From Prevotella sp. (lineage in GTDB: Bacteria; Bacteroidota; Bacteroidia; Bacteroidales; Bacteroidaceae): DNA of 64,000 nucleotides. The stretch covers positions 1 to 64,000 of the forward strand of contig JALFCW010000082.1 in NCBI GenBank assembly GCA_022771625.1, read 5' to 3'. The notes beneath the pieces were generated by a model. It saw nothing but the letters and a program-made list of their open reading frames with translations, was not told where the DNA came from and did not search any database. Both the position numbers and the translations under genes were made by a program. The first letter of the stretch is position 1; each line of letters begins with the position of its first letter. Below, one piece after another: positions 37,922-50,678 of the stretch.

Positions 37922-38266
37922 TTATTTAGCATCTACGATGAAGAGCGTTATTTTCTGCTTGCGCCTCAGTGCCTTGCGTACCCGTTCATATAGGCGATTG
38001 TAATAGAGGGCACTCTTGATGACAACACCTGGAATTAGATATTTACCCACAATGAACGATTGGCGACGGAGATTATAAACTCCGTTGCCCATTAGGGCAT
38101 AGCGTCGGAACGTTTCGGTAGATGTGATTGGATACTCTCCCTGCTTAAGGGCATGTCTTGAGTTTTCGGCAGTGTGTGCCACTACGACTCCATCGATTTT
38201 CAGTACTCCGTCGATGGTGTCATTCTTATATCTGTAGCGTGAAAGATAAATATTCATAATTAACAA
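37922..38266 (-). CDS. DUF5675 family protein
   Basis: YRYKNDTIDGVLKIDGVVVAHTAENSRHALKQGEYPI...; phage/element-associated family. Confidence 0.6.
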   Translation of the reverse strand: MLIMNIYLSRYRYKNDTIDGVLKIDGVVVAHTAENSRHALKQGEYPITSTETFRRYALMGNGVYNLRRQSFIVGKYLIPGVVIKSALYYNRLYERVRKALRRKQKITLFIVDAK

Positions 38267-38275
38267 ATTAACGAT

Positions 38276-39220
38276 TTAACAATTTAACAATTTCTGAACA
38301 TAGTATTCGGCAAAGTCCTTGCAACCTTCAGGCAACTGGTGACGTGTTATACGGTCGCTCACCTCTCGCAATTTTAGAAACAATCGTTCGCCAGGCTTAT
38401 CGTTGTCGGGATACATGTGTAGCGAGAGTCCGTTGAGCGGTTTGAGGTCGTCTGGTTTGAGTAATGTTGCCGATGGTATGGCAATGGCCTTGTGTCCTGC
38501 CGACATCATAGCCCAGCAGTCACTGCATCCCTCAGTGACGAAGAGCGGTTCACCGGGTTTCAGCATACGTAATATCTGTAGGTTATACACGTGGCATTGG
38601 CTTCCCTTTAGAAATCTGAACCTCGGTTCGCCCTCTATTTTCTTTTTTGCATATTGTCCGAGGTATCTCCACTGTATGCTCTGCAGTCGGCCGTCGAGTC
38701 CGAAGTAGGGAATGATTAGATGGGAGTCATTGCTGTTGATGCCACACCACTTGATTACCCTCGGGTCGAGTTTTCTCTCGTTGAAGAGGAATGCTTTTGC
38801 CGCATCGGTGATTATGGGATGTTCCACAAGATATGTCAATTTTGAGATGTCGGGAACATTGACCTTTTGATGCGTTTCAACTGGCATCAGCGGTCGCCTT
38901 TTCACTCCCCTCATTGGTCGTCCTGTACCGTTGTCTATGGATATCCCGAACGTTTGTGCCAGCCATCTCACGGCATCCCTGAAGTTGAGTCCTTCCACCT
39001 GCATGCACAGGTCGATAGGACCGCCGTAGTGGTCACACACATAGCATCTAAACTTGTTTTTTGCCTCATTAAAATGTAGCGACGGTTTTGAGTCGTTGTG
39101 ATATGGACATAGTGCCCAGTGTCGTGCCACATTGAGGCCTAAGGCATCAGCCACCTGCTCGATGGGCAGGTCGCTGATTTTCTGGATGTCATATTGCTTT
39201 ATCATGGTTTCAATTTCCAA
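38276..39220 (-). CDS. CHC2 zinc-finger DNA primase with toprim
   Basis: ALCPYHNDSKPSLHFNEAKNKFRCYVCDHYGGPIDLCMQVEGLNFRDAVRWLAQTFGI; FVTEGCSDCWAMMSAGHKAIAIPSA. Confidence 0.9.
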   Translation of the reverse strand: MEIETMIKQYDIQKISDLPIEQVADALGLNVARHWALCPYHNDSKPSLHFNEAKNKFRCYVCDHYGGPIDLCMQVEGLNFRDAVRWLAQTFGISIDNGTGRPMRGVKRRPLMPVETHQKVNVPDISKLTYLVEHPIITDAAKAFLFNERKLDPRVIKWCGINSNDSHLIIPYFGLDGRLQSIQWRYLGQYAKKKIEGEPRFRFLKGSQCHVYNLQILRMLKPGEPLFVTEGCSDCWAMMSAGHKAIAIPSATLLKPDDLKPLNGLSLHMYPDNDKPGERLFLKLREVSDRITRHQLPEGCKDFAEYYVQKLLNC

Positions 39221-39251
39221 TTTTCAACTTTCAATTTTCAATATTCAATTT

Positions 39252-40724
39252 TCAACTTCTCAGTTTCTCATATACGTTCTTTGCTGTTTTCCTTATCCAT
39301 CCTTTGGCGTTCCATTGGCTGAGGAAGAACCTTGCGTCGGTGGATAGTTCGTTTTTGGTGATGAGTTCTTCGAGTTGTGCTCGGGTGAATGTAGTGGTGA
39401 GTTGGTCTATGAGAGCCTTGCGGCTGTCGATTTTTGCACCTGCCAATCGCTTCATATAGTAGTCCTCATATTGTTGTCCCCAACGGTTGTTGGTGGATTT
39501 CAAACAGAAGTCGGCCATAAACTTGTAGAATTTTCGGCATAACTTTCGAATCTCCAACTCGGAGTGAATCTCTCTGCCTGCCATCTCATTGTCGAGCAGA
39601 TAGAGGTGGTATAGTAGTCCGGTGCATCTGAAGGCGTTGACAGAGGCGCGCTTGCGGAAAGAGTCGATTGACAGGAATCCCTTCACTCCGCGGTCCTTCA
39701 TGTCCTTCACCTGTCGGCACATCTTGTTGGTCCACTTGTCGATGTCGGCAAAAAGCCACGACATGTCGAGGTTGATTACAGGTCGCAGTCCTCCGTCCTC
39801 GCTGTAAGTCTGTCTCATCAGTAATTCGAGCATCCTCTTGATATTGGCTTCCTGCTCGGGTGTGAAATCCTCGAAATGTGCAGGGTTGGCACCTGTCTCG
39901 TCCTCCAATGTGCATATGATGGCTCTTGAGCATCCGCCTCCCACAATCTCGCGCTTGTTGAACACGTCATCTACATCCTGTGGCGTACCGCAGAACATCG
40001 AGCAAATCTGTACGTCAGCAATTGCCGAATACGAATTATCGGAGGCGAAATCTTGTCCGAATTTCGAACCGATGTCGTATGCCACTCTCATGACGGTTCT
40101 GAGATTCGAGAATCCCGACTTGCCAGCATCGTTCACCTGTGCTAACTCTTCAGCCCACATCCAAAATGTGAGATAGTCGCCTAAGATGCGCTTGTAGTAG
40201 TCGGCACGCTTCACGATGACCGTCTTAGACGTGGATGGTGGTAGGCATCGGATGGTGGTCTTCGGCGCCTCGCCAATCTTCTCGTTTTGCGTTCGGGCGT
40301 TCTTTTTCTCGCGGTATTCCTGTTCTTGTCGTCTCTGTTTTTCGTCGAGAGCCTCAAGAGTGGGAGTGATAATCTGCTCAACCACATCAGCAAAACATCC
40401 CTTACCCGTGCTGGGCGGTGCCTCGAACACAACCTGCACATGACAAGCATGGCGCCTCTTGCGGTCGTAGGGATAAGCCATTCTAATTCGGCAGTCGATA
40501 GCCCCAAGGGGCGAGAATAGCGAGAGCATGATAGGCACCTTGCGTTTCATGGGAGCCGTTATTAGGTTCTCGCGGAATATACTTGGAAAGAGTGTCTCCC
40601 TGAATGGCAGCTTCACATAGTCGGCTGTTTTGAATGGCGCGAGGTCTTCGTCCTCGTCCACCTCCGTGACAACGGCAGCAGGCTCTGCCTCAGTCTCTTG
40701 GAAAATGTCTTTTTCTTCACTCAT
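39252..40724 (-). CDS. DUF3987 domain-containing protein (helicase/primase-associated)
   Basis: FEAPPSTGKGCFADVVEQI P-loop-like; DUF3987 organisation; probable ATG at 40724. Confidence 0.78.
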   Translation of the reverse strand: MSEEKDIFQETEAEPAAVVTEVDEDEDLAPFKTADYVKLPFRETLFPSIFRENLITAPMKRKVPIMLSLFSPLGAIDCRIRMAYPYDRKRRHACHVQVVFEAPPSTGKGCFADVVEQIITPTLEALDEKQRRQEQEYREKKNARTQNEKIGEAPKTTIRCLPPSTSKTVIVKRADYYKRILGDYLTFWMWAEELAQVNDAGKSGFSNLRTVMRVAYDIGSKFGQDFASDNSYSAIADVQICSMFCGTPQDVDDVFNKREIVGGGCSRAIICTLEDETGANPAHFEDFTPEQEANIKRMLELLMRQTYSEDGGLRPVINLDMSWLFADIDKWTNKMCRQVKDMKDRGVKGFLSIDSFRKRASVNAFRCTGLLYHLYLLDNEMAGREIHSELEIRKLCRKFYKFMADFCLKSTNNRWGQQYEDYYMKRLAGAKIDSRKALIDQLTTTFTRAQLEELITKNELSTDARFFLSQWNAKGWIRKTAKNVYEKLRS

Positions 40725-40737
40725 ATTCGTGGATTTT

Positions 40738-41058
40738 TTAGTCAATTACATTAAATGCATTTAGGATTTCCGAATACACGTCGAAAGCCAACATGCTGCG
40801 GTCGAGGCTTTTATTGGCCTGTATCGTCTTCATGTGAATCTGATACTTGCCGTCCTGCCGGTGCACGAGTGAGCAATACTTGCCGTCATAAAGCTTAGGG
40901 TTTCGCTTTACGCTCTTCACCTTCACGGCCTCCTCAAACCTGAACCCGTCGTCTGTGCGCGAGATTACTCCGTTGAGGCAGCCGTTGTTGTCGAGCCTCT
41001 CCGATGTTGACTGAAACTGGCACACCAAGTTGGTGGCATTAAAAATCTTTTTTTCCAT
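40738..41058 (-). CDS. Hypothetical protein of the primase module
   Basis: ORF MEKKIFNATNLVCQFQSTSERLDNNG...; no recognised family. Confidence 0.55.
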   Translation of the reverse strand: MEKKIFNATNLVCQFQSTSERLDNNGCLNGVISRTDDGFRFEEAVKVKSVKRNPKLYDGKYCSLVHRQDGKYQIHMKTIQANKSLDRSMLAFDVYSEILNAFNVID

Positions 41059-41078
41059 AGTTGAGTATTTTATTAATG

Positions 41079-41432
41079 TTAATAATTTAAGTTCTTGATG
41101 TAGTGTGACATAGGGATGATGTCGCGGTCGGGTCGCAAATACAGGTCGGGGTTGTAGCGGATGTGTGACAGTTCCACTTTGCTCCAACAGCTAATCTCCA
41201 CATCATACTGCTTCAGGCATTGCCCGATAATCATTCTTGATACTTCAAGCATACTTAGGCTACCTTTGTATTCAGTAGCCTTGCCTAAGTTCGTCACAAT
41301 CGCAATAGCCTTTTCGTTGAGATAGCAATATTTTTTCACGAATGGCCAGTGTCGCAGATGCTCTGCCACCAACTCGAGGTTCTCTGGCTTGAGCGTAGTG
41401 ATGAAACATTGATAGTAATATTTTCTTTTCAT
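41079..41432 (-). CDS. Hypothetical protein of the primase module
   Basis: ORF MKRKYYYQCFITTLKPENLELVAEHLRHWPFVKKYCYLNEK...; no recognised family. Confidence 0.55.
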   Translation of the reverse strand: MKRKYYYQCFITTLKPENLELVAEHLRHWPFVKKYCYLNEKAIAIVTNLGKATEYKGSLSMLEVSRMIIGQCLKQYDVEISCWSKVELSHIRYNPDLYLRPDRDIIPMSHYIKNLNY

Positions 41433-41661
41433 TTTTTTGTATATGTCGAGAGGGATGGTTTTCTCTCGAATCCGTTGCAAAGGTATTGATGACTCAAATG
41501 CTCAATCATTTTTTTTCGTACGATTTGAGTCAATATTGCAAGTTATGCCATATCTGGCTGATTGTCAGAGAGAAATAATTTTTATCAAATAAAAGTTTTT
41601 TTTCAGTTATTGACTCAGTCGATGGTGCAGTCAAAAAAAGTAGGAAAAAAGAGGAAAATCC

Positions 41662-41693
41662 TTTGGCAGTAACCGAAATATTTTGTAATTTTG
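41662..41693 (+). promoter_or_regulatory. Bacteroidota-type promoter TTTG-N20-TAATTTTG before the TcmP operon
   Basis: TTTG 41662-41665, 20-nt spacer, TAATTTTG 41686-41693; ATG at 41720. Confidence 0.75.
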
Positions 41694-41719
41694 CATTTCG
41701 TATCACAAACGCTTTATTT

Positions 41720-42631
41720 ATGGCAAAGAAAAGGAGCATTGACGAATATATGATACGCACATTGTCGTATTATCAGTCTCAGGGTGGCATTTACTCTGAG
41801 ATTATCACTCTATTGATGCAACTAAGGGAGAAAAAAGGCTATCGCAATCTCATTCCGCTGCCTGCAAAGGTGCTCAATGCCGCTTCATATTACTATGACG
41901 AGATGAAGGATGGCAATCGTGACCTTGCATGCGGCACTCCAAATATTCTTGTAGATAGTGTAGTAACCATAATGGCAGCTGCCGACAATAATAAAGAGGT
42001 TAAAGAAAAGATGATAGAAGTGGTGAAAAACGATGAAAAGTTTTTTCCTCATTTCACAAAACTCTTAGAGAAATTAGAAAAACAAGATGACAACACAGAC
42101 TTTAAGGCTGAGATAGAGAGCCTGAGGGCAGAAAGCGAGAAGCTGCAAGCAGAATTAATGGCAAAAGACTCGGCAATCGACATGCTATTAGACTCATTGA
42201 CTCTTGTCTCGCAAGAGAAGGATACCATGTCAGCCAAATTAGCGGCAGCAGAGAAGCGATGCCAGATAGCAGAGCAGAATAAATACGAGGGCAGTTCGCT
42301 CGACCGCTATTTCACCCTCGACAACATTCTTAAATGGATAGAGGGTCGCAAGCAGTATATTTATGCTGATCAGGTGTTCCGCATGTTGTCCGACATGAAG
42401 GACGGAATAGCCACCCAAGACGAGAGTATGAGAATAAAGCGCTTGGAAGAAGATATGTTGGCAAAGGAACAGCCACGCAACATCATCAATAACAATTATG
42501 CCTATGGCAGCAATCAGATGACTGGCATGCTGAATAATCCCCAATTGCCGATAGGTATGACACTCGAGGATTTTAAAAAAGAGGTTGAAAATTGGATTAA
42601 AAATAAGAACCATGAGCAGCAACAAGGATGA
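41720..42631 (+). CDS. Hypothetical coiled-coil protein, first gene of the TcmP operon
   Basis: MAKKRSIDEYMIRTLSYYQSQGG...; coiled-coil LRAESEKLQAELMAKDSAIDMLLDSL; C-term RNIINNNYAYGSNQ. Confidence 0.7.
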   Translation: MAKKRSIDEYMIRTLSYYQSQGGIYSEIITLLMQLREKKGYRNLIPLPAKVLNAASYYYDEMKDGNRDLACGTPNILVDSVVTIMAAADNNKEVKEKMIEVVKNDEKFFPHFTKLLEKLEKQDDNTDFKAEIESLRAESEKLQAELMAKDSAIDMLLDSLTLVSQEKDTMSAKLAAAEKRCQIAEQNKYEGSSLDRYFTLDNILKWIEGRKQYIYADQVFRMLSDMKDGIATQDESMRIKRLEEDMLAKEQPRNIINNNYAYGSNQMTGMLNNPQLPIGMTLEDFKKEVENWIKNKNHEQQQG

Positions 42632-43259
42632 AGTAAAAATATACAATGAGAACCACATGGAGAACTGCAATGTTTTCCAGGGCGACATCTATGGCGCCAC
42701 ATTCCCCTTGCCAGGGGCGAATGTCACCATAAACCAATATTATGGCAAGGGACAGAAACCCAAAAGCGAGGTGGAGGAGGGAAATGTGGAGCCGGCAGAA
42801 GCACGAGAGCGTCGCAAGTTGGAGGCCATTAAGGCGATAACCGACCGATTTGACTTCAATGACGAAATGCTTGGTTATGACTCCCTTGGCCGACGAATTA
42901 CCTCGGAGCGCATTGCCGTGCTCTTTAGCAAATGTCTTGGCATTGGCAGCTATCCCTCGCGCCCATATCGCCTCATGATAGAACAGGTGTGGGTGCTGCT
43001 CATCGACGCCCGCAAACAATGCACCAAGCGCCCTGGCGAGGATTACTTCCGTCAGACTGTGCTCAACATCGTGGGGTATTTTGTGAGCAGGGGTATCATC
43101 TGCGGAGCCAAGCTCGACATCGCCCAATGCATATTCGCCGATGCCGACGCCAATCTCGCGCGCAATATCGAGAGGAATATCGAGTCGGCTGTCTTTCCCG
43201 AGGGATTGGCGGATATGTTGGACCTTTATATAGAGAAACTGAGAAATGGAGAGTTTTGA
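42612..43259 (+). CDS. Hypothetical protein, second gene of the TcmP operon
   Basis: MSSNKDEVKIYNENHMENCNVFQGDIYGATFPLPGANVTINQYYG...; overlaps both neighbours. Confidence 0.68.
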   Translation: MSSNKDEVKIYNENHMENCNVFQGDIYGATFPLPGANVTINQYYGKGQKPKSEVEEGNVEPAEARERRKLEAIKAITDRFDFNDEMLGYDSLGRRITSERIAVLFSKCLGIGSYPSRPYRLMIEQVWVLLIDARKQCTKRPGEDYFRQTVLNIVGYFVSRGIICGAKLDIAQCIFADADANLARNIERNIESAVFPEGLADMLDLYIEKLRNGEF

Positions 43260-44166
43260 TAAATCGAATATTGACAATTGGGGCGGATTGTGGACCGAAC
43301 AGAAGCTCGACACCTTCGAGAGTTATGTCAAGGCATATCTCACGATAATGAATGTATATCGTGAGAAATACAACTGGAAACTCATCTATTTCGACGGGTT
43401 TGCCGGAAGCGGCACGCGCTCTAACGAGGAGTTGGAGGACGAACATCGCAAGTCGCTCGACCTCTTCGAGGGCAATGTGGATGACGACGAGATGAAGGTG
43501 TATCAAGGAGCTGCCGAAAGGGTGGTGAGACTTGAGGAGAAGATGCGAGGATTCGATTTCTATTATTTTATCGACCTCAAGGAAGACAACTGCCTGCGGC
43601 TCGAACTCAAGCTGAGGCAATACCCAGTGAAGGGTTTGATGCAGTTCCGCCCTGGCGATGCCAACATGGCAGCACGCCAATTAGGCAATGCACTGAAACA
43701 AAAGCCCTATCTGAAAGCCCTCGCCCTGCTCGATCCCTTCGGCATGAACTTGGAGTGGGCTACCATCGAGTCGATAGCATGCAAGGGCATAGACTTGTGG
43801 ATACTCATTCCGAGCGGAGTGATAGTCAATCGACTGCTCGACAAGCAAGCCCAACTCATCCATCACGAGAAACTGTCCTCGTTCTTCGGAATGTCGAAAG
43901 AGGAGATAAGGAAATGGTTTTATGAAGAGAAAACCGAGATAGATCTCTTTGCTGAGGAACGAGTGTGGTATCAAAAGGTGGATAATCCCATCAAACGCAT
44001 AGCCGACCTGTATGTGGAGCGCTTGGGCGAGCTCTTTCCCTACGTCACCCCCGAGCCTCTTGTGATGCGCAACAGTCGCTATGTACCAATATTCCATTTC
44101 GTGTGCGCCAGCTACAACTCCACTGCGGTAAAGATAGCTCAACAGATAATAACCAAGCGACAGTAA
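43246..44166 (+). CDS. tcmP: Three-Cys-motif partner protein (TcmP), copy 1
   Basis: GGLWTEQKLDTFESYVKAYLTIMNVYREKYNWKLIYFDGFAGSGTRS; LALLDPFGMNLEW. Confidence 0.88.
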   Translation: MESFDKSNIDNWGGLWTEQKLDTFESYVKAYLTIMNVYREKYNWKLIYFDGFAGSGTRSNEELEDEHRKSLDLFEGNVDDDEMKVYQGAAERVVRLEEKMRGFDFYYFIDLKEDNCLRLELKLRQYPVKGLMQFRPGDANMAARQLGNALKQKPYLKALALLDPFGMNLEWATIESIACKGIDLWILIPSGVIVNRLLDKQAQLIHHEKLSSFFGMSKEEIRKWFYEEKTEIDLFAEERVWYQKVDNPIKRIADLYVERLGELFPYVTPEPLVMRNSRYVPIFHFVCASYNSTAVKIAQQIITKRQ

Positions 44167-44171
44167 GAAAA

Positions 44172-45329
44172 ATGGATAAGACCAAAATATCCGCCAAGGA
44201 CGTGATGAAACCACACTCCGAAGCCAAGGTGTTGTTCTATCAGAAATACCTCGACATAAAACTCATGATTCTCGTGTGTGCCCATTTTGCGCGCGAGATA
44301 CACATCTACGACCTCTTCTGTGGCCGTGGAATATATGCCGACGGCAAGAAAGGCTCGCCCATAAGGGCATACGAGACGATTTGCAACGTCAGGCATAAAA
44401 GACCAGGATATGACAAGCCCATCTACCTGCATCTCAACGACCGCAACCGCAGATGCATCGAGAAGGTAAGGGGATATATCGAGGCACTGCCAAAATCCGA
44501 TACCCCTCCATGCAATGTGGAATACACCAATATGGACGCAACATCCATACTGATGCAACTCGGCAATAGTGGAAAAACGAAAAAGGGTATAGTCAACGTG
44601 TTCTTCATCGACCCCTACGGATATAAGCAAATAAGTCGCAAGTTTCTCGAATATCTGCTCAGATTGGGCAGTAGCGAGATTCTGCTCTTCCTGCCTGTGT
44701 CCTTCATGCAGCGGTTCACCAAGCATGCTTTCAGTAAGGATGTAACCCCAGGCTCTTTGCCCCTCAGGCATTTCATATCGGATTATTTCCCCGAGGGCCA
44801 TCCTATGCGCACAGGACACACCATCGACATTGGGCATTATGTGGATTATCTTGCCGAGGCATTCTCGTGTGGCGGGCAGTTCTTCACCACGGCCTATCCC
44901 ATCGAGCGAAACGAGCACAACCTCTTTGCCCTCTTCTTTTTCTCGAGGCATATCTTCAGCTATGAGAAGATACTCGACATCAAGTGGAAGATGATCGACC
45001 AGTGGGGATTCGGATTCCATCTGCCCGACGAGCAGGCAGGCTTGTTTGAGGAGCAATTCAAGGCCGACCGAATCGCTGAAATGCTCGAACAACTGAGGGT
45101 GGCACTTGTCTCTTATCTTGCCCAGAAGGTGCGCACCAACAAGGATATATACGACTTCACCGTAAGGCATGGTTATCTGCCCAAGCATGCAAAAGCCATA
45201 TTGCGTGATATGCGCAACAACAACCAATTGTCAGTCATGGACATCATGACGCAAGAGGAAATATCCAACAAAAATCGTTTTGACATTGAATATAAAAAGG
45301 AAGCAACATTAATTTATAAGATACTATGA
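44172..45329 (+). CDS. tcmP: Three-Cys-motif partner-like protein (TcmP), divergent copy 2
   Basis: HSEAKVLFYQKYLDIKLMILVCAHFAREIHIYDLFCGRGIYADGKKGSPIRAYE; VFFIDPYGYKQI. Confidence 0.8.
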   Translation: MDKTKISAKDVMKPHSEAKVLFYQKYLDIKLMILVCAHFAREIHIYDLFCGRGIYADGKKGSPIRAYETICNVRHKRPGYDKPIYLHLNDRNRRCIEKVRGYIEALPKSDTPPCNVEYTNMDATSILMQLGNSGKTKKGIVNVFFIDPYGYKQISRKFLEYLLRLGSSEILLFLPVSFMQRFTKHAFSKDVTPGSLPLRHFISDYFPEGHPMRTGHTIDIGHYVDYLAEAFSCGGQFFTTAYPIERNEHNLFALFFFSRHIFSYEKILDIKWKMIDQWGFGFHLPDEQAGLFEEQFKADRIAEMLEQLRVALVSYLAQKVRTNKDIYDFTVRHGYLPKHAKAILRDMRNNNQLSVMDIMTQEEISNKNRFDIEYKKEATLIYKIL

Positions 45330-46054
45330 GGACAACCAAGATAGAATGGACCGAACGCACGTGGAACCCCGTGACGGGATGCACCAAGCAGTCGCCAGGC
45401 TGCGCACATTGTTATGCCGAGACTATGGCACGACGCCTGCACGCCATGGGGCTGAAGAAATATGGCAACGGCTTTGAACCGACTCTTCATCCCGAATCGC
45501 TCGACGAACCGTTAGCATGGAAAAAGGGCAGCAGCATCTTCGTATGCTCAATGAGCGACCTATTCCATCCCGACGTGCCATTTGAATTTATCGACAAGGT
45601 AATGGCCACCATCGAGGCCACACCTCAACATCGCTACCAGCTGCTCACCAAGCGGGCCGAGCGTATGGCGGAATATTTTTCCACCCGCGAGGTGCCGGTC
45701 AATGCATGGCTTGGAGTCACGGTGGAATGTCGCCAGGTGCTGTCGCGCATTGATGCACTCAGAAGCATAGAGGATGCTACCGTGCGTTTCCTCTCGTGCG
45801 AACCCTTGCTCGAAGACCTTGGCGACTTCGACCTCACTGGCATCCAATGGATGATAGTGGGAGGCGAGAGCGGTCCCAATGCCCGTCCAATGCACGAGCA
45901 GTGGGTGCTCAATCTGCGCCAGCTTGCCAAGCGTCATCGTGTATCCTTCTTCTTCAAGCAGTGGGGCACATGGGGACGCGACGGTGTGAAGCGCTCCAAG
46001 CATGCCAACGGCAAGAAACTCGAAGGCAAGGTGGTGCAGCAGATGCCGAGGTGA
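45326..46054 (+). CDS. DUF5131 / phage Gp37-Gp68 family three-Cys-motif protein
   Basis: TKIEWTERTWNPVTGCTKQSPGCAHCYAETMARRL (CX6CX2C); VGGESGPNARPM; FFFKQWGTWG. Confidence 0.93.
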   Translation: MRTTKIEWTERTWNPVTGCTKQSPGCAHCYAETMARRLHAMGLKKYGNGFEPTLHPESLDEPLAWKKGSSIFVCSMSDLFHPDVPFEFIDKVMATIEATPQHRYQLLTKRAERMAEYFSTREVPVNAWLGVTVECRQVLSRIDALRSIEDATVRFLSCEPLLEDLGDFDLTGIQWMIVGGESGPNARPMHEQWVLNLRQLAKRHRVSFFFKQWGTWGRDGVKRSKHANGKKLEGKVVQQMPR

Positions 46055-46092
46055 GGATTTCACATATCCACAGAATAATTATAAAGTGTTTT

Positions 46093-47112
46093 CTAATTTG
46101 CAATGGTATTTATTGTTCTTTCTCGTACATTGGACAATGGTACACTATTGAGTCGCGTTATCTTTTTATTCCTAATCAATATACGAAAATAGGGACATTT
46201 GCCATTAATACGTAAATCCTTGCCATCATCACCTTTTCGGAATTTGACAATCTCGAATTGCTCAGGATTATATTTATGCAAAAAAGTGATAGGAACTCCC
46301 ATCAATCCTGCATAGTCTTTGGGGATGTCTTGTGTTTTATTCACATTTATGCCATTACAGTTATCATAAGTCGGGTAGGCTTCCTCATTGCCATAATAGT
46401 ATTTGGTAAGGATAATATCATCATGGCGTTGTTTAAGTTCCAAGTTAGTAAGCCATAAACAACCATTTGTAGCAATTATGGTTTGACCTTCTTTATTCAC
46501 ACTTATTTCTGTCCCATATTGCTGATAATGATTCGGAACAATAAACCCAGAAATCCCACGACCAAGATTTACCCCTAACCATGCCTTGTTTGCTTGAATC
46601 AACTCAAATATTTCCTTATATGTAATAGCGTTGACATTACCTATGACGAGAAATTGTTTTTTATATCTCACTATTTGAGCAATAAATTCACGGAACAAAG
46701 AGAATGGAGGATTAGTTACTACAATGTCAGACTGTAATAACAAATCCACACTCTCCCTGCTGCGAAAGTCACCATCTCCATGGAAATGACAAATTATCAT
46801 ATTTTCATCTGAACCTTCATATTCACAATAGTAAGGTCTTTCATCAACTTGTATTTGAAAGAGATCATTTGATTGTTCCCTATAGAATGAAGCAATGAGT
46901 TTGCGCAGGCCTAATCTTTGAAAGTTTTCCTTAAAGAACCGAAAAAAGTTACTCACTTTTGGGTCGTCACAATTACAGTAAACAACCTTGCCACAGAAGC
47001 ATTCAGGATAATACTGCAATTCACTCTCGATGTCACAAAGTTGTGTATAGAATTCGTCACTTTTTGATTTCTTTGCCTTTTGAAGAAGGTTGTTTGTTGC
47101 TTTTCTCACCAT
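46093..47112 (-). CDS. EcoRI-family adenine-specific DNA methyltransferase (predicted GAATTC)
   Basis: KKSKSDEFYTQLCDIESELQYY, VVYCNCDDPKVSNFFRFF, SDIVVTNPPFSLFREFIAQI, LGRGISGFIVPNHY; recalled similarity to M.EcoRI. Confidence 0.92.
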   Translation of the reverse strand: MVRKATNNLLQKAKKSKSDEFYTQLCDIESELQYYPECFCGKVVYCNCDDPKVSNFFRFFKENFQRLGLRKLIASFYREQSNDLFQIQVDERPYYCEYEGSDENMIICHFHGDGDFRSRESVDLLLQSDIVVTNPPFSLFREFIAQIVRYKKQFLVIGNVNAITYKEIFELIQANKAWLGVNLGRGISGFIVPNHYQQYGTEISVNKEGQTIIATNGCLWLTNLELKQRHDDIILTKYYYGNEEAYPTYDNCNGINVNKTQDIPKDYAGLMGVPITFLHKYNPEQFEIVKFRKGDDGKDLRINGKCPYFRILIRNKKITRLNSVPLSNVRERTINTIAN

Positions 47113-47115
47113 TAA

Positions 47116-47946
47116 TTATCCTTTCATTTGATTCCACAAATCTCTACCTAACATTTGAAGTGATGTTTCAGCAACCTCAAACATTATCTCAAACATTTTT
47201 TGTCTATCCCAACTTCTACCATTGCCTTGTGTATATATAGAAGCTGCCTGCAACATGATAGTTTTATCTTCGTGTTGCACAAATTTGTTTTTGCATAAGT
47301 TTGTATTTATTGGCATACCATAGTTGGCAGCGGTCAGTCTATCCAACCTGTTCAGTATACCAGAATTATATTCCAATATAACGACTCTCCCGTCAGGTCT
47401 TGTAACATGGACTGTTTCAGTTAAGAAATTTGAACCTTCCAAAAATAGCACGTATGGGAAATGAGATTCAGAAAGCATATAATTGGCGATTTCAGAGATG
47501 TTTTTGTGAGAACGCTCAATAGCATTTCCGGCAGCCATGAGATCCTGATCTTTCTTTGTTCCAACCAATTCTCCTTTTTCAATATTCTCAATATCTTTAC
47601 CTTGATGTTTTGCCTCAGAGACTAATACAACTCGCCATTTGTTATTGTCGTCCTGCACCTCAATTATACCACCATCAGGAATAATGCTCGCATTTTCGAC
47701 AAATAGAGTCTGTCCAAGATATTTGTCGACTTTTTGTAATGCCTCATTTATCTCTTTCTTTTCAATGCTCTGACGATACCTAAATGTTAGGTTTGGGTAC
47801 TTATGCTCTAAAGCACTTTTTACTACATGAGAAACATCCCCAGTAGTCTTATCGTGTTTCTTCGCTTCTAAACCAAATATACCGATGACACCTTGACTTT
47901 CTCTGTGCTGTGTCGTCAGTCTTGTTGATTGATTCTTCTTTGCCAT
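47116..47946 (-). CDS. EcoRI-family type II restriction endonuclease (predicted GAATTC)
   Basis: QGVIGIFGLEAKKHD, PDGGIIEVQDDNNKWRVVLVSEAKHQGKDIENI, QDLMAAGNAIERSHKNISEIANYMLSESHFPYVLFLEGSNFLTE, LDRLTAANYGMPINTNLC closely match remembered R.EcoRI. Confidence 0.96.
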   Translation of the reverse strand: MAKKNQSTRLTTQHRESQGVIGIFGLEAKKHDKTTGDVSHVVKSALEHKYPNLTFRYRQSIEKKEINEALQKVDKYLGQTLFVENASIIPDGGIIEVQDDNNKWRVVLVSEAKHQGKDIENIEKGELVGTKKDQDLMAAGNAIERSHKNISEIANYMLSESHFPYVLFLEGSNFLTETVHVTRPDGRVVILEYNSGILNRLDRLTAANYGMPINTNLCKNKFVQHEDKTIMLQAASIYTQGNGRSWDRQKMFEIMFEVAETSLQMLGRDLWNQMKG

Positions 47947-47961
47947 ATTATTTTTCTATTA

Positions 47962-49155
47962 TTATTCGTTGTTTATATCAATAAAATCACTTAATGGACG
48001 TATTTTTGCCCGATAAGTATTAATTCTTTCTTTAAGGCTGCTACGCATCTTAAAATTTAGATGTTTGCTATTGTCAAATTTTAACACTATGTAGTAGGCA
48101 GCATGTGAGGGAGTGAATCCGTATTTTTCCAGTGTCTCTTTCGTCCATATCTGAAAACACCCCTTCTGTTTTAATTTAAACAATTGGCAATCTTCTCCAC
48201 CTGTATGAAGCAAGACATACCCCATACGTTCAAAACCAGGGGTTACACATAAGGAACCATCTGTTTCACCTGCACGCAGATAGCAAATACCATTGTCAAT
48301 CATTTTAGCCTTTGTGTCAGGTTTTGCATGATTAACTATCACTGTGATTTCATAAGGATTTTCAGCAATCATTTTTTGCATCTTTATCCAACGCAAGGGA
48401 TTTTCAATGTCAATCTTTCTTCGTTTGCCTAAGTCAAGATAATCTGAACATTGATCAATTCCTATAAACTCTCTCTCCAAAAGATTGGCTGCTATACCTG
48501 TGGTACAACTGCCTGCAAAAGGGTCTAAAATTACTTCTCCTGCTTTTGTTGAAGCAAGCAAGATTCGATAAAGCAAGCGCAGCGGCTTCTGAGTTGGATG
48601 TTTCCCGCATGTTTTTTCCCACGTCCCAACGGTAGGAAGGTTCCAAACGTCAGGCATTAAGACACCACCATTCAGTTGTTTCATTAACTCATAATTAAAG
48701 AAATGTTTTAACTTCGGGTTCTTTCTTGCCCATATGATATATTCAGAAGAAAAGTTGAAATGTAAATCACCCCATGTTGGTGTCGGATCAGTCTTATGCC
48801 AAGTAACAATATTGATAATATGGAATCCAGCTTGTTTCAGGCACTTTTCAACAGAATATATGTTGTGAAAAGTTCCACACACCCATATTGTCCCATTATC
48901 TTTCAAAATGGGTTTACAGGCATCTATCCATTCTTGATTAAACTTATCTATTGATTCAATATTGTCTGCTTTATCCCAATCTCCTTTATTGACAGGCACA
49001 ATACGTCTCCCCTGTATTTTCTTACCGCCATTCGACAAAAAATAGGGAGGGTCTGCAAATATCATGTCAACTGTTCCTGTTAGTTGATTTAATACTTGCT
49101 TCGTATCTCCGTGAAACAGAGTAAAAGTCTTATCTTCTGATTGGTAATATATCAT
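47962..49155 (-). CDS. DNA methyltransferase, DpnA-like catalytic part with about 130-aa C-terminal extension
   Basis: MIFADPPYFLSNGGKKIQGRRIVPVNKGDWDK, KHPTQKPLRLLYRILLASTKAGEVILDPFAGSCTTGIAA. Confidence 0.88.
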   Translation of the reverse strand: MIYYQSEDKTFTLFHGDTKQVLNQLTGTVDMIFADPPYFLSNGGKKIQGRRIVPVNKGDWDKADNIESIDKFNQEWIDACKPILKDNGTIWVCGTFHNIYSVEKCLKQAGFHIINIVTWHKTDPTPTWGDLHFNFSSEYIIWARKNPKLKHFFNYELMKQLNGGVLMPDVWNLPTVGTWEKTCGKHPTQKPLRLLYRILLASTKAGEVILDPFAGSCTTGIAANLLEREFIGIDQCSDYLDLGKRRKIDIENPLRWIKMQKMIAENPYEITVIVNHAKPDTKAKMIDNGICYLRAGETDGSLCVTPGFERMGYVLLHTGGEDCQLFKLKQKGCFQIWTKETLEKYGFTPSHAAYYIVLKFDNSKHLNFKMRSSLKERINTYRAKIRPLSDFIDINNE

Positions 49156-50120
49156 AATTTTCTATTACTTGCTTCTATTCTTTTCAAAAACTCATCAATA
49201 GGAATATTCTCATTTATTTCGTATGGCTTTAAATGCAAAGTGTCTATTTTAGCGAGATGTTTTTTGAAATAATCTCTTAATGAATCATCTGCATCAACCA
49301 TTATTGAATGACGATTTTCCTCAATACATACTCTGCCGGTCGTACCAGAACCGGCGAAGAAATCCAAGACTATCGAACCTTCGTATGAAAGAGATTTAAT
49401 AAATCTTCTAATAATCTCTGCCGGCTTCTGTGTTGGGTGACCAACTCTTTCAGCAGAGTTCCCATTGAGACGACATATTTCCCAAACGTTGGTAGGATTT
49501 TTTCCTTTTTCTATGTTTTCGGGTATAAGGCGTTTGTCTTTTAATGCAGCCTTCTTTGCTTCTTCATCGTATGGGATTCTAACAGAATCAAGGTCAAAGA
49601 AATATTTTTTTGACTTTGATAACCAAATAGCTTCTTCATGACGATTAGCAAAATATCGATGAGCACTCATTCCGTTTTTATAATGCCATACAATAAGATT
49701 AACAAGTCTTAATTTTGTATTATGACGAACATAATGAAGAATTTCCAACAAATCGCCTTGTTTCAGGTCTTGGAACTGAAAACCGCCAAAGATAATACAA
49801 TTACCTTTGTCAGACATTACTCGATATATTTCATCAATCCATTGCTTTGCCCATTCCAAATAATTCGGATATGAGTCCCAATAATCAATATCAAGATTGT
49901 ATGGAGGATCAATTAATACCAACTGGATAGATGCGTCTGGCAAAGTTTTCAAAAAATCAACGGCATCTTGGATATATAGTGCATGGTAAGTTGTTGCGAC
50001 TTCTTTAGGAGAAACCGCAGAACTATGCAATACACCATCACGACGTTGTTGAACAAGTGTTCGCAATCCACTATTAAAATGAGACTTATTAGTCATTGAA
50101 TTATATATTTGTGGGTGCAA
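49152..50120 (-). CDS. DNA methyltransferase, beta class, M.RsrI/M1.MboII-like
   Basis: LVLIDPPYNLDIDYWDSYPNYLEWAKQWI, GMSAHRYFANRHEEAIWLSKSKKYFFDLDSVRIPYDEE, RVGHPTQKPAEIIRR, DFFAGSGTTGRV. Confidence 0.9.
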   Translation of the reverse strand: MHPQIYNSMTNKSHFNSGLRTLVQQRRDGVLHSSAVSPKEVATTYHALYIQDAVDFLKTLPDASIQLVLIDPPYNLDIDYWDSYPNYLEWAKQWIDEIYRVMSDKGNCIIFGGFQFQDLKQGDLLEILHYVRHNTKLRLVNLIVWHYKNGMSAHRYFANRHEEAIWLSKSKKYFFDLDSVRIPYDEEAKKAALKDKRLIPENIEKGKNPTNVWEICRLNGNSAERVGHPTQKPAEIIRRFIKSLSYEGSIVLDFFAGSGTTGRVCIEENRHSIMVDADDSLRDYFKKHLAKIDTLHLKPYEINENIPIDEFLKRIEASNRKL

Positions 50121-50678
50121 ATATACACAATTATTTTGATATTGCTTTCCAAAATGAATAAAAGTTTTGAAAAAGTAGAAACTTTTTTTGTGCGATTTAT
50201 AATAATAGATATTATTTTGAAGTGCTTTAGTTGATAAATTTTACTATTATAGTTTGTGTCATTCATATTTTCTGAGTTTTTTTTATGGGTAGTTTCTGGT
50301 CGCTTTTCTGGTCGCTTTTCTGGTCGTTTCTGTTATATTAGTTAAAATGTTAATTTGTTAATCCGCTGCCTCCGCTATAGCCTTTAGCAGGGGAAGTGGT
50401 CTTGAGAGTGGGGAGGTGAATGACTGAGGAGGTATCGCGCGCGCACGTCCTAATTAATATGATATATTTTTAAATATTAAACTATCATAGAAGTAATAAA
50501 TACTAAAAAATATACTGTAAGGTCTTACACGAGGTAAGCCCCTGCAAGTGGCGGTTATTAGATTAGAAGCATTAACATGTTAACATATTAACATCCGCAT
50601 CATCCCTTCTGGACTCTCTCCACAAGGCATGGGGCAAAAGTGGTGGGACAAGGGGAGGGCGAGGTGAGGGACAAGTGA

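What the first reader, a model, noticed from the sequence alone, without database searches (positions are those of the whole stretch)
41662..46054. Five-gene TcmP / three-Cys operon: candidate undescribed (possibly defence) system
Seen: a near-consensus promoter (TTTG-N20-TAATTTTG) precedes five tightly packed plus-strand genes: coiled-coil protein, NINQYYG protein, two divergent TcmP-like proteins and a CX6CX2C DUF5131 (phage Gp37/Gp68) protein. Three of four junctions overlap (20, 14 and 4 bp); one gap is 5 bp. Known: TcmP and the three-Cys family co-occur widely, but I know of no established function. Inference: two TcmP paralogues plus two accessory proteins that both carry N-rich [IN]N.YYG-type motifs suggest a multi-component machine. 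It sits beside a restriction-modification locus, as defence systems often do.
Basis: partly seen in the sequence, partly recalled or inferred. Interest (0 to 1): 0.78.

Follow-up and report, generated by a model that had tools for sequence, protein, structure and literature searches.

The report
Radical-SAM/methyltransferase-like operon, candidate defence
A Bacteroidales bacterium carries a compact five-gene operon built around a predicted DNA-repair-like radical enzyme and two different methyltransferase-like partners; it is an elaborated form of a catalogued but untested phage-defence candidate, and the same unusual three-enzyme set recurs beside proven defence genes in rhizobial plasmids.

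Summary
The core (genes 3-5) is not undescribed: gene 3 matches PADLOC candidate PDC-M41A, gene 4 PDC-M30A, and gene 5 both PDC-M41B and PDC-M30B. These are unvalidated 'guilt-by-embedding' defence candidates. AlphaFold2 plus Foldseek point to spore photoproduct lyase, a radical-SAM DNA-repair enzyme, for gene 5, and to class I methyltransferases for TcmP. Across 39 TcmP-DUF5131 pairings DUF5131 is conserved (median 56% identity) and TcmP is not (19%), suggesting one constant enzyme with exchangeable recognition partners. What is unusual is the composite: two TcmPs from opposite sides of a deep split share one DUF5131. In Bacteroidota I saw it only here and in one close relative, but the same trio occurs independently in Rhizobiaceae plasmids beside hna or Hachiman. 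Genes 1-2 precede this TcmP lineage in every resolvable locus and share a motif, though not the 'YYG' motif claimed. Best reading: a mobile, defence-island nucleic-acid-modifying system. Defence itself is untested, and in S. meliloti hna alone restores the tested phage resistance.

The parts
41662..41693 (+). Bacteroides-type promoter TTTG-N20-TAATTTTG
   Evidence: identical in L011
41612..41632 (.). conserved imperfect inverted repeat GACTCAGTCGATGGTGCAGTC (GACT...AGTC) in the divergent intergenic region, possible operator
   Evidence: equivalent present 100-180 nt upstream of g1 in L007-L011
41720..42631 (+). gene 1: coiled-coil protein with conserved N-terminal part and C-terminal N-rich motif
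   Evidence: dN/dS 0.16
42612..43259 (+). gene 2: N-terminal motif (NENHMENCNVFQGDIYGATFPLPGANVTI) plus C-terminal domain of unknown family
   Evidence: dN/dS 0.16
43246..44166 (+). gene 3: short TcmP (TIGR04474; PADLOC PDC-M41A), class I methyltransferase motifs
   Evidence: dN/dS 0.06
44172..45329 (+). gene 4: long TcmP with C-terminal GMT-like winged helix (TIGR04474; PDC-M30A; PF22560)
   Evidence: dN/dS 0.11
45326..46054 (+). gene 5: DUF5131 (PF07505; PDC-M41B/M30B), CX6CX2C, predicted spore-photoproduct-lyase-like radical SAM fold
   Evidence: dN/dS 0.04
37922..41480 (-). divergent neighbour cluster (DUF5675-like, CHC2 primase, DUF3987-like, two small ORFs) found next to g1-g2 in all loci where that side is assembled; context, not part of the operon
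46062..50329 (-). exchangeable restriction-modification cassette (EcoRI-type MTase and REase, two N6/N4 MTases); context

Best explanation
A composite PDC-M41/PDC-M30-type system, most likely a nucleic-acid-modifying anti-mobile-element system carried as cargo in a defence island. Shown: TcmP and DUF5131 form a conserved gene pair; DUF5131 is much more conserved than TcmP; the two TcmPs are ancient, separately evolved subtypes sharing one DUF5131; genes 1-2 are linked to this TcmP lineage; all five genes are under selection. Predicted from models: DUF5131 has the partial TIM-barrel fold of spore photoproduct lyase with three conserved cysteines placed after the first strand; TcmP has a class I SAM-methyltransferase fold. 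Inferred: DUF5131 carries a 4Fe-4S cluster and makes a deoxyadenosyl radical that acts on a DNA or RNA base; each TcmP binds a different target and positions or methylates it, so two TcmPs give two specificities for one radical enzyme; genes 1 and 2 associate through their shared motif and sense or scaffold. The outcome would be damage to, or mis-marking of, invading nucleic acid.
For: PADLOC PDC-M41A (3e-100), PDC-M30A (7e-91), PDC-M41B/M30B (1e-108). In 36 of 40 sampled Bacteroidales TcmP loci DUF5131 follows TcmP directly on the same strand; three others end at a contig edge. DUF5131 model pLDDT 94.6; its only PDB hits at E <= 1e-3 are six spore photoproduct lyase structures, best 8e-5, TM about 0.5. 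TcmP: invariant DxFxGxG and DxxG; all nine PDB hits at E <= 1e-3 are SAM methyltransferases including tRNA Trm1. Identity DUF5131 56% against TcmP 19% (medians), Mantel r 0.31, 0 of 999 permutations. g3 and g4 on opposite sides of a 98/93-supported split. The same set (PDC-M41A + PDC-M30A + shared B) on S. meliloti pSymA beside hna, A. tumefaciens pAt beside Hachiman HamA/HamB and a BovA match, R. rhizogenes pC6.5b beside an Hna-type helicase and a type IIG-like R-M gene. Other neighbours: DarG, AbiEi/ii, Abi genes, EcoRI R-M.
Against: No phage, plasmid or enzyme assay exists for any member that I found. hna alone restores complete phage resistance to pSymA-cured S. meliloti (PMC12445080), so the trio there is not needed against those phages. 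TcmP-DUF5131 also travels as passenger in Tn3-family transposons, and DUF5131 without TcmP nearby is common in viruses (62 of 80 viral loci), which is not what a pure host-defence gene predicts. Neighbours of the 40 Bacteroidales loci are mixed, including housekeeping genes, and I ran no matched control. Fold matches are distant (rmsd about 11 A, TM <= 0.52). CX6CX2C is not the canonical radical SAM motif.
Confidence: 0.42

Rival explanations
1. A mobile-element maintenance or repair module: DUF5131/TcmP repairs or marks the element's own DNA (as spore photoproduct lyase repairs thymine photoproducts) and benefits transposons, plasmids and phages rather than defending the host.
For: Passenger in Tn3-family transposons of Pseudomonas plasmids; 161 phage records and 80 IMG/VR loci with DUF5131, the IMG/VR ones mostly without TcmP; 425 plasmid records; spore-photoproduct-lyase fold.
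Against: Repeated placement beside hna, Hachiman, BovA, DarG, AbiE, R-M; two divergent TcmPs per enzyme and fast TcmP divergence fit target recognition better than general repair.
Confidence: 0.3
2. Genes 1-2 are not part of the TcmP system: they belong to the divergent DUF3987/primase element, and the operon is a read-through arrangement.
For: g1 lies divergent from that cluster in window, L007, L009, L010, L011; distant motif-bearing pairs occur by a DUF3987 gene without TcmP (L013); G138, which carries L010's contig, has g1-g2 but no TcmP found elsewhere in a 90% complete genome; 41A-type TcmPs outside this clade lack g1-g2.
Against: g1-g2-TcmP order, mostly with overlapping junctions, in all five loci where the right side is assembled (window, L007, L008, L009, L011); those five TcmPs form one clade with 100/99 support; in L010 the contig ends right after g2.
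Confidence: 0.3
3. A housekeeping or physiological tRNA/rRNA modification pathway unrelated to conflict.
For: Trm1 and CmoA among TcmP fold neighbours; TcmP motif DPFG resembles that of Trm1 (motif comparison from memory).
Against: Sparse distribution: TcmP in 45 of 394 Bacteroidales and 55 of 378 Bacteroidota genomes, mobile contexts, lineage-inconsistent partners; not expected of housekeeping.
Confidence: 0.1
4. A signalling cell-suicide module: g1 (C-terminal motif) and g2 (N-terminal motif) act as an amyloid-like signalling pair that triggers an effector.
For: C-terminal/N-terminal placement of a shared motif in adjacent genes resembles the bacterial amyloid signalling pairs (20-40 aa motifs) described in PMC8086366; motif sharing E 4e-5 to 1e-3.
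Against: No Bell, NLR or other signalling domain found; in window and L011 the g1 motif has diverged from the g2 motif, against strict homotypic templating; no amyloid prediction was run.
Confidence: 0.08

Closest known systems
PADLOC candidates PDC-M41 and PDC-M30 (TcmP + DUF5131)
   Same: g3 is PDC-M41A, g4 PDC-M30A, g5 both B components
   Different: Here both A types share one B, and a two-gene accessory pair precedes them; the catalogued systems are listed as A plus B
S. meliloti pSymA trio next to hna (SMa2243 region)
   Same: short TcmP (PDC-M41A), long TcmP (PDC-M30A), one DUF5131
   Different: Long TcmP and DUF5131 are convergent to the short TcmP, no g1-g2, assembled independently by the TcmP tree
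Spore photoproduct lyase (PDB 4FHC-4FHG, 4K9R, 4RH0)
   Same: Best fold match of DUF5131; cluster cysteines ending in CX2CY (spore photoproduct lyase motif from memory)
   Different: CX6CX2C instead of CX3CX2C, shorter protein, TM about 0.5, near-constant TcmP partner in Bacteroidales
Class I SAM methyltransferases such as Trm1 and CmoA
   Same: Fold and motif placement of TcmP
   Different: No sequence-level match in the PDB; activity untested
Bacterial amyloid signalling motif pairs (BASS; PMC8086366)
   Same: Shared short motif at the C-terminus of one protein and N-terminus of its neighbour
   Different: No Bell or NLR partner domains; BASS profiles were not available to test here

Membership tests
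PADLOC PDC-M41 | A component (TcmP subtype 41A) adjacent to B component (DUF5131) | tested here: met
   g3 3e-100, g5 9.5e-109, though g4 lies between them in the window; directly adjacent in L007 and L009
PADLOC PDC-M30 | A component (TcmP subtype 30A) adjacent to B component | tested here: met
   g4 7e-91, g5 2e-108
Anti-phage defence system | Measured protection against phage or plasmid | not testable with these tools
   no assay; only neighbourhood evidence
Radical SAM superfamily | Canonical CX3CX2C cluster motif | tested here: not met
   CX6CX2C conserved in 44 sequences; exceptions to the canonical spacing are known in the superfamily (from memory)
Radical SAM superfamily | Partial TIM barrel with three cysteines after strand 1 | tested here: met
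   model pLDDT 94.6; spore photoproduct lyase is the top six PDB hits; cysteine placement read from the DSSP string, coordinates not inspected
Radical SAM superfamily | 4Fe-4S cluster and SAM cleavage | not testable with these tools
   needs protein
Class I SAM methyltransferase (TcmP) | Rossmann fold, glycine-rich motif I after strand 1, acidic residue after strand 2, motif IV D after strand 4 | tested here: met
   D47xFxGxG, D90, D147xxG at strand ends in the model of g4; model mean pLDDT only 72
Class I SAM methyltransferase (TcmP) | Methyl transfer activity | not testable with these tools
   needs protein
Bacterial amyloid signalling pair | Shared motif in adjacent gene termini | tested here: met
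   in L007-L009; diverged in window g1
Bacterial amyloid signalling pair | Effector (Bell-type) and NLR partner domains | tested here: not met
   no significant Pfam or PADLOC hit for g1 or g2

The most novel reading that the evidence does not exclude
A new composite defence system in which a single spore-photoproduct-lyase-like radical enzyme is directed to foreign nucleic acid by two interchangeable TcmP specificity subunits and controlled by a motif-paired sensor/scaffold (genes 1-2), with radical chemistry on DNA or RNA bases not known to me from any defence system.
Probability: 0.15. Interest if true: 0.88.

Novelty: new variant of a known kind. Interest (0 to 1): 0.52.

Why it matters
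TcmP and DUF5131 are widespread on mobile elements (425 plasmid records with DUF5131) yet have no known function that I could find. The model and conservation data turn 'function unknown' into a testable proposal: one radical enzyme, swappable target-recognition partners, nucleic-acid substrate. The recurrence of the trio beside hna and Hachiman gives ready genetic systems in which to test it.

Tried and rejected
Recent tandem duplication of TcmP: rejected (15-16% identity; opposite sides of a supported split). Sequence search for solved relatives of TcmP, DUF5131 or g2: nothing significant. g2 in plasmids and viral contigs: none. g4 in phages: none. Possible double TcmP in L085/L086: one TcmP broken by a transposase insertion. 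Literature for TcmP/DUF5131 function: nothing beyond incidental mentions. Neighbour survey by PADLOC/Pfam over 108 proteins: mixed, and left without a control, so not used as proof. Weak HeLo hit in L013: below cut-off, ignored.

Full report
Observation. The TTTG-N19-21-TANNTTTG pattern occurs five times in the window against 0.61 expected, and the copy in front of the operon is identical in relative L011. All five genes show purifying selection between the window and L011 (dN/dS 0.04-0.16), so they are real genes.

Identity of the core. g3 and g4 are TcmP (TIGR04474) and g5 is DUF5131 (PF07505). PADLOC assigns g3 to PDC-M41A, g4 to PDC-M30A and g5 to both B components. These are 'guilt-by-embedding' candidates without validation; a P. 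aeruginosa survey reports PDC-M30 in 32 of 100 strains, 68.8% of them classed as phage-resistant, a correlation only (PMC10855318, read).

How the core is built. In 40 sampled Bacteroidales TcmP loci, DUF5131 follows TcmP directly in 36; three more end at contig edges and in one no TcmP was called. In the Pseudomonas and alphaproteobacterial plasmids I read, the order is often reversed, DUF5131 then TcmP. Across 39 TcmP-DUF5131 pairings (window and L011 each counted with both TcmPs) DUF5131 has median identity 56% and TcmP 19%; the two identity matrices correlate (Mantel r 0.31, 0 of 999 permutations reach it). The window's DUF5131 is nearest to those of the g1-g2 loci (97%, 86%, 73%), so g4 looks like the recruited partner. 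A maximum-likelihood tree puts g3 and g4 on opposite sides of a 98/93 split; they are not tandem duplicates.

The composite recurs. The S. meliloti pSymA locus holds hna, a short TcmP (PDC-M41A 1.7e-61), a convergent long TcmP (PDC-M30A 1.6e-20) and one DUF5131. The same trio is on A. tumefaciens pAt next to Hachiman (HamA 3e-97, HamB E=0) and a BovA match, and on R. rhizogenes pC6.5b next to an Hna-type helicase and a type IIG-like R-M gene, there split by an IS3 element. These TcmPs branch apart from g3 and g4, so the pairing arose independently. Among the Bacteroidota genomes sampled (394 order-level, 378 phylum-level, partly the same genomes) no genome other than the window's has two intact adjacent TcmPs; L011, found by another route, is the second case.

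Structure. AlphaFold2 gives DUF5131 at mean pLDDT 94.6. Its only PDB matches at E <= 1e-3 are six spore photoproduct lyase entries (best 8e-5, TM 0.50-0.52, rmsd about 11 A), with other radical SAM enzymes (lipoyl synthase, anSME, MiaB) further down. C19, C26 and C29 fall between the first strand and the helix starting at residue 30, where radical SAM enzymes hold their cluster (location rule from general knowledge). TcmP g4 is modelled at mean pLDDT 72 with a clear seven-strand core; all nine hits at E <= 1e-3 are SAM methyltransferases. The invariant residues D47xFxGxG and D147xxG and the nearly invariant D90 fall at the ends of strands 1, 4 and 2, the usual SAM-site positions. No activity is shown.

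Genes 1-2. Full-length g2 homologues were found in only five other loci (L010 and G138 are the same contig). In the four with sequence to the right, g1-g2 stand directly before a 41A-type TcmP (L007, L008, L009, L011); in L010 the contig ends after g2. These TcmPs and g3 form one clade (100/99), so the link arose once. A 39-residue profile of the g2 N-terminus also hits the g1 C-termini of L007-L009 (E 4e-5 to 1e-3 among 6036 ORFs) and two distant proteins in L012 and L013, so the two proteins share a motif. In the window and L011 the g1 copy has diverged. g1 lies divergent from a DUF3987-like/primase cluster in every locus where that side is assembled, so that element remains a rival owner of g1-g2.

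Neighbourhood. Window and L011 are colinear from 34.5 to 52.6 kb except that the cassette after the operon is swapped: EcoRI-type R-M plus two methyltransferases in the window (46062-50329), a different methyltransferase cassette in L011. L007 has DarG and a PDC-S15 match, L009 has AbiEi/AbiEii, a Leisingera plasmid has Abi genes. The wider set of Bacteroidales neighbours is mixed and was not compared with a control.

Mechanism. Preferred: DUF5131 is the constant radical enzyme and TcmP the variable, exchangeable partner that chooses (and perhaps methylates) the nucleic-acid target; two TcmPs widen the range; g1-g2 regulate or scaffold. The defence role rests on neighbourhood only. The strongest contrary facts are that hna alone restores phage resistance in pSymA-cured S. 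meliloti (PMC12445080), that the pair rides on Tn3-family transposons, and that many viral DUF5131 genes have no TcmP nearby.

Verdict. New variant of a known, still uncharacterised kind.

Noticed in passing
window 46062-50329 vs L011 11230-13735: R-M cassette exchanged between homologous flanks in two related genomes: EcoRI-type R-M plus two N6/N4 methyltransferases versus a different methyltransferase cassette.
   Followed up: partly
window 41612-41632; L007-L011 100-180 nt upstream of g1: Conserved imperfect inverted repeat GACT...AGTC between the operon and the divergent primase/DUF3987 cluster, possible shared operator.
   Followed up: partly
L165 (pCAR1), L166 (P. aeruginosa pF046): DUF5131-TcmP next to a site-specific integrase and a divergent DNA-binding protein; in pF046 also tnpC and a Tn3-family transposase (Tn4651/Tn4661-like from memory). 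PDC-M30 counts in P. aeruginosa may largely reflect such a transposon.
   Followed up: partly
L085, L086 3033-4289; L171 6825-8014: TcmP disrupted by a transposase insertion on viral contigs; an IS3 element between the two TcmPs in R. rhizogenes.
   Followed up: no
Bacteroidales genomes: A second DUF5131 group scoring about 100-165 bits, mostly in genomes without TcmP, probably the 'radical SAM mobile pair protein A' type.
   Followed up: no
L013 9567-10531, L012 9991-10437: Distant motif-bearing proteins (NHFEAGS..NCQVFNG...) without TcmP; in L013 a coiled-coil/motif gene pair near a DUF3987 gene, suggesting a wider family of motif-paired proteins in Bacteroidales elements.
   Followed up: partly
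L010 (G138 contig 12): g1-g2 at a contig end in a genome where no TcmP was found.
   Followed up: partly
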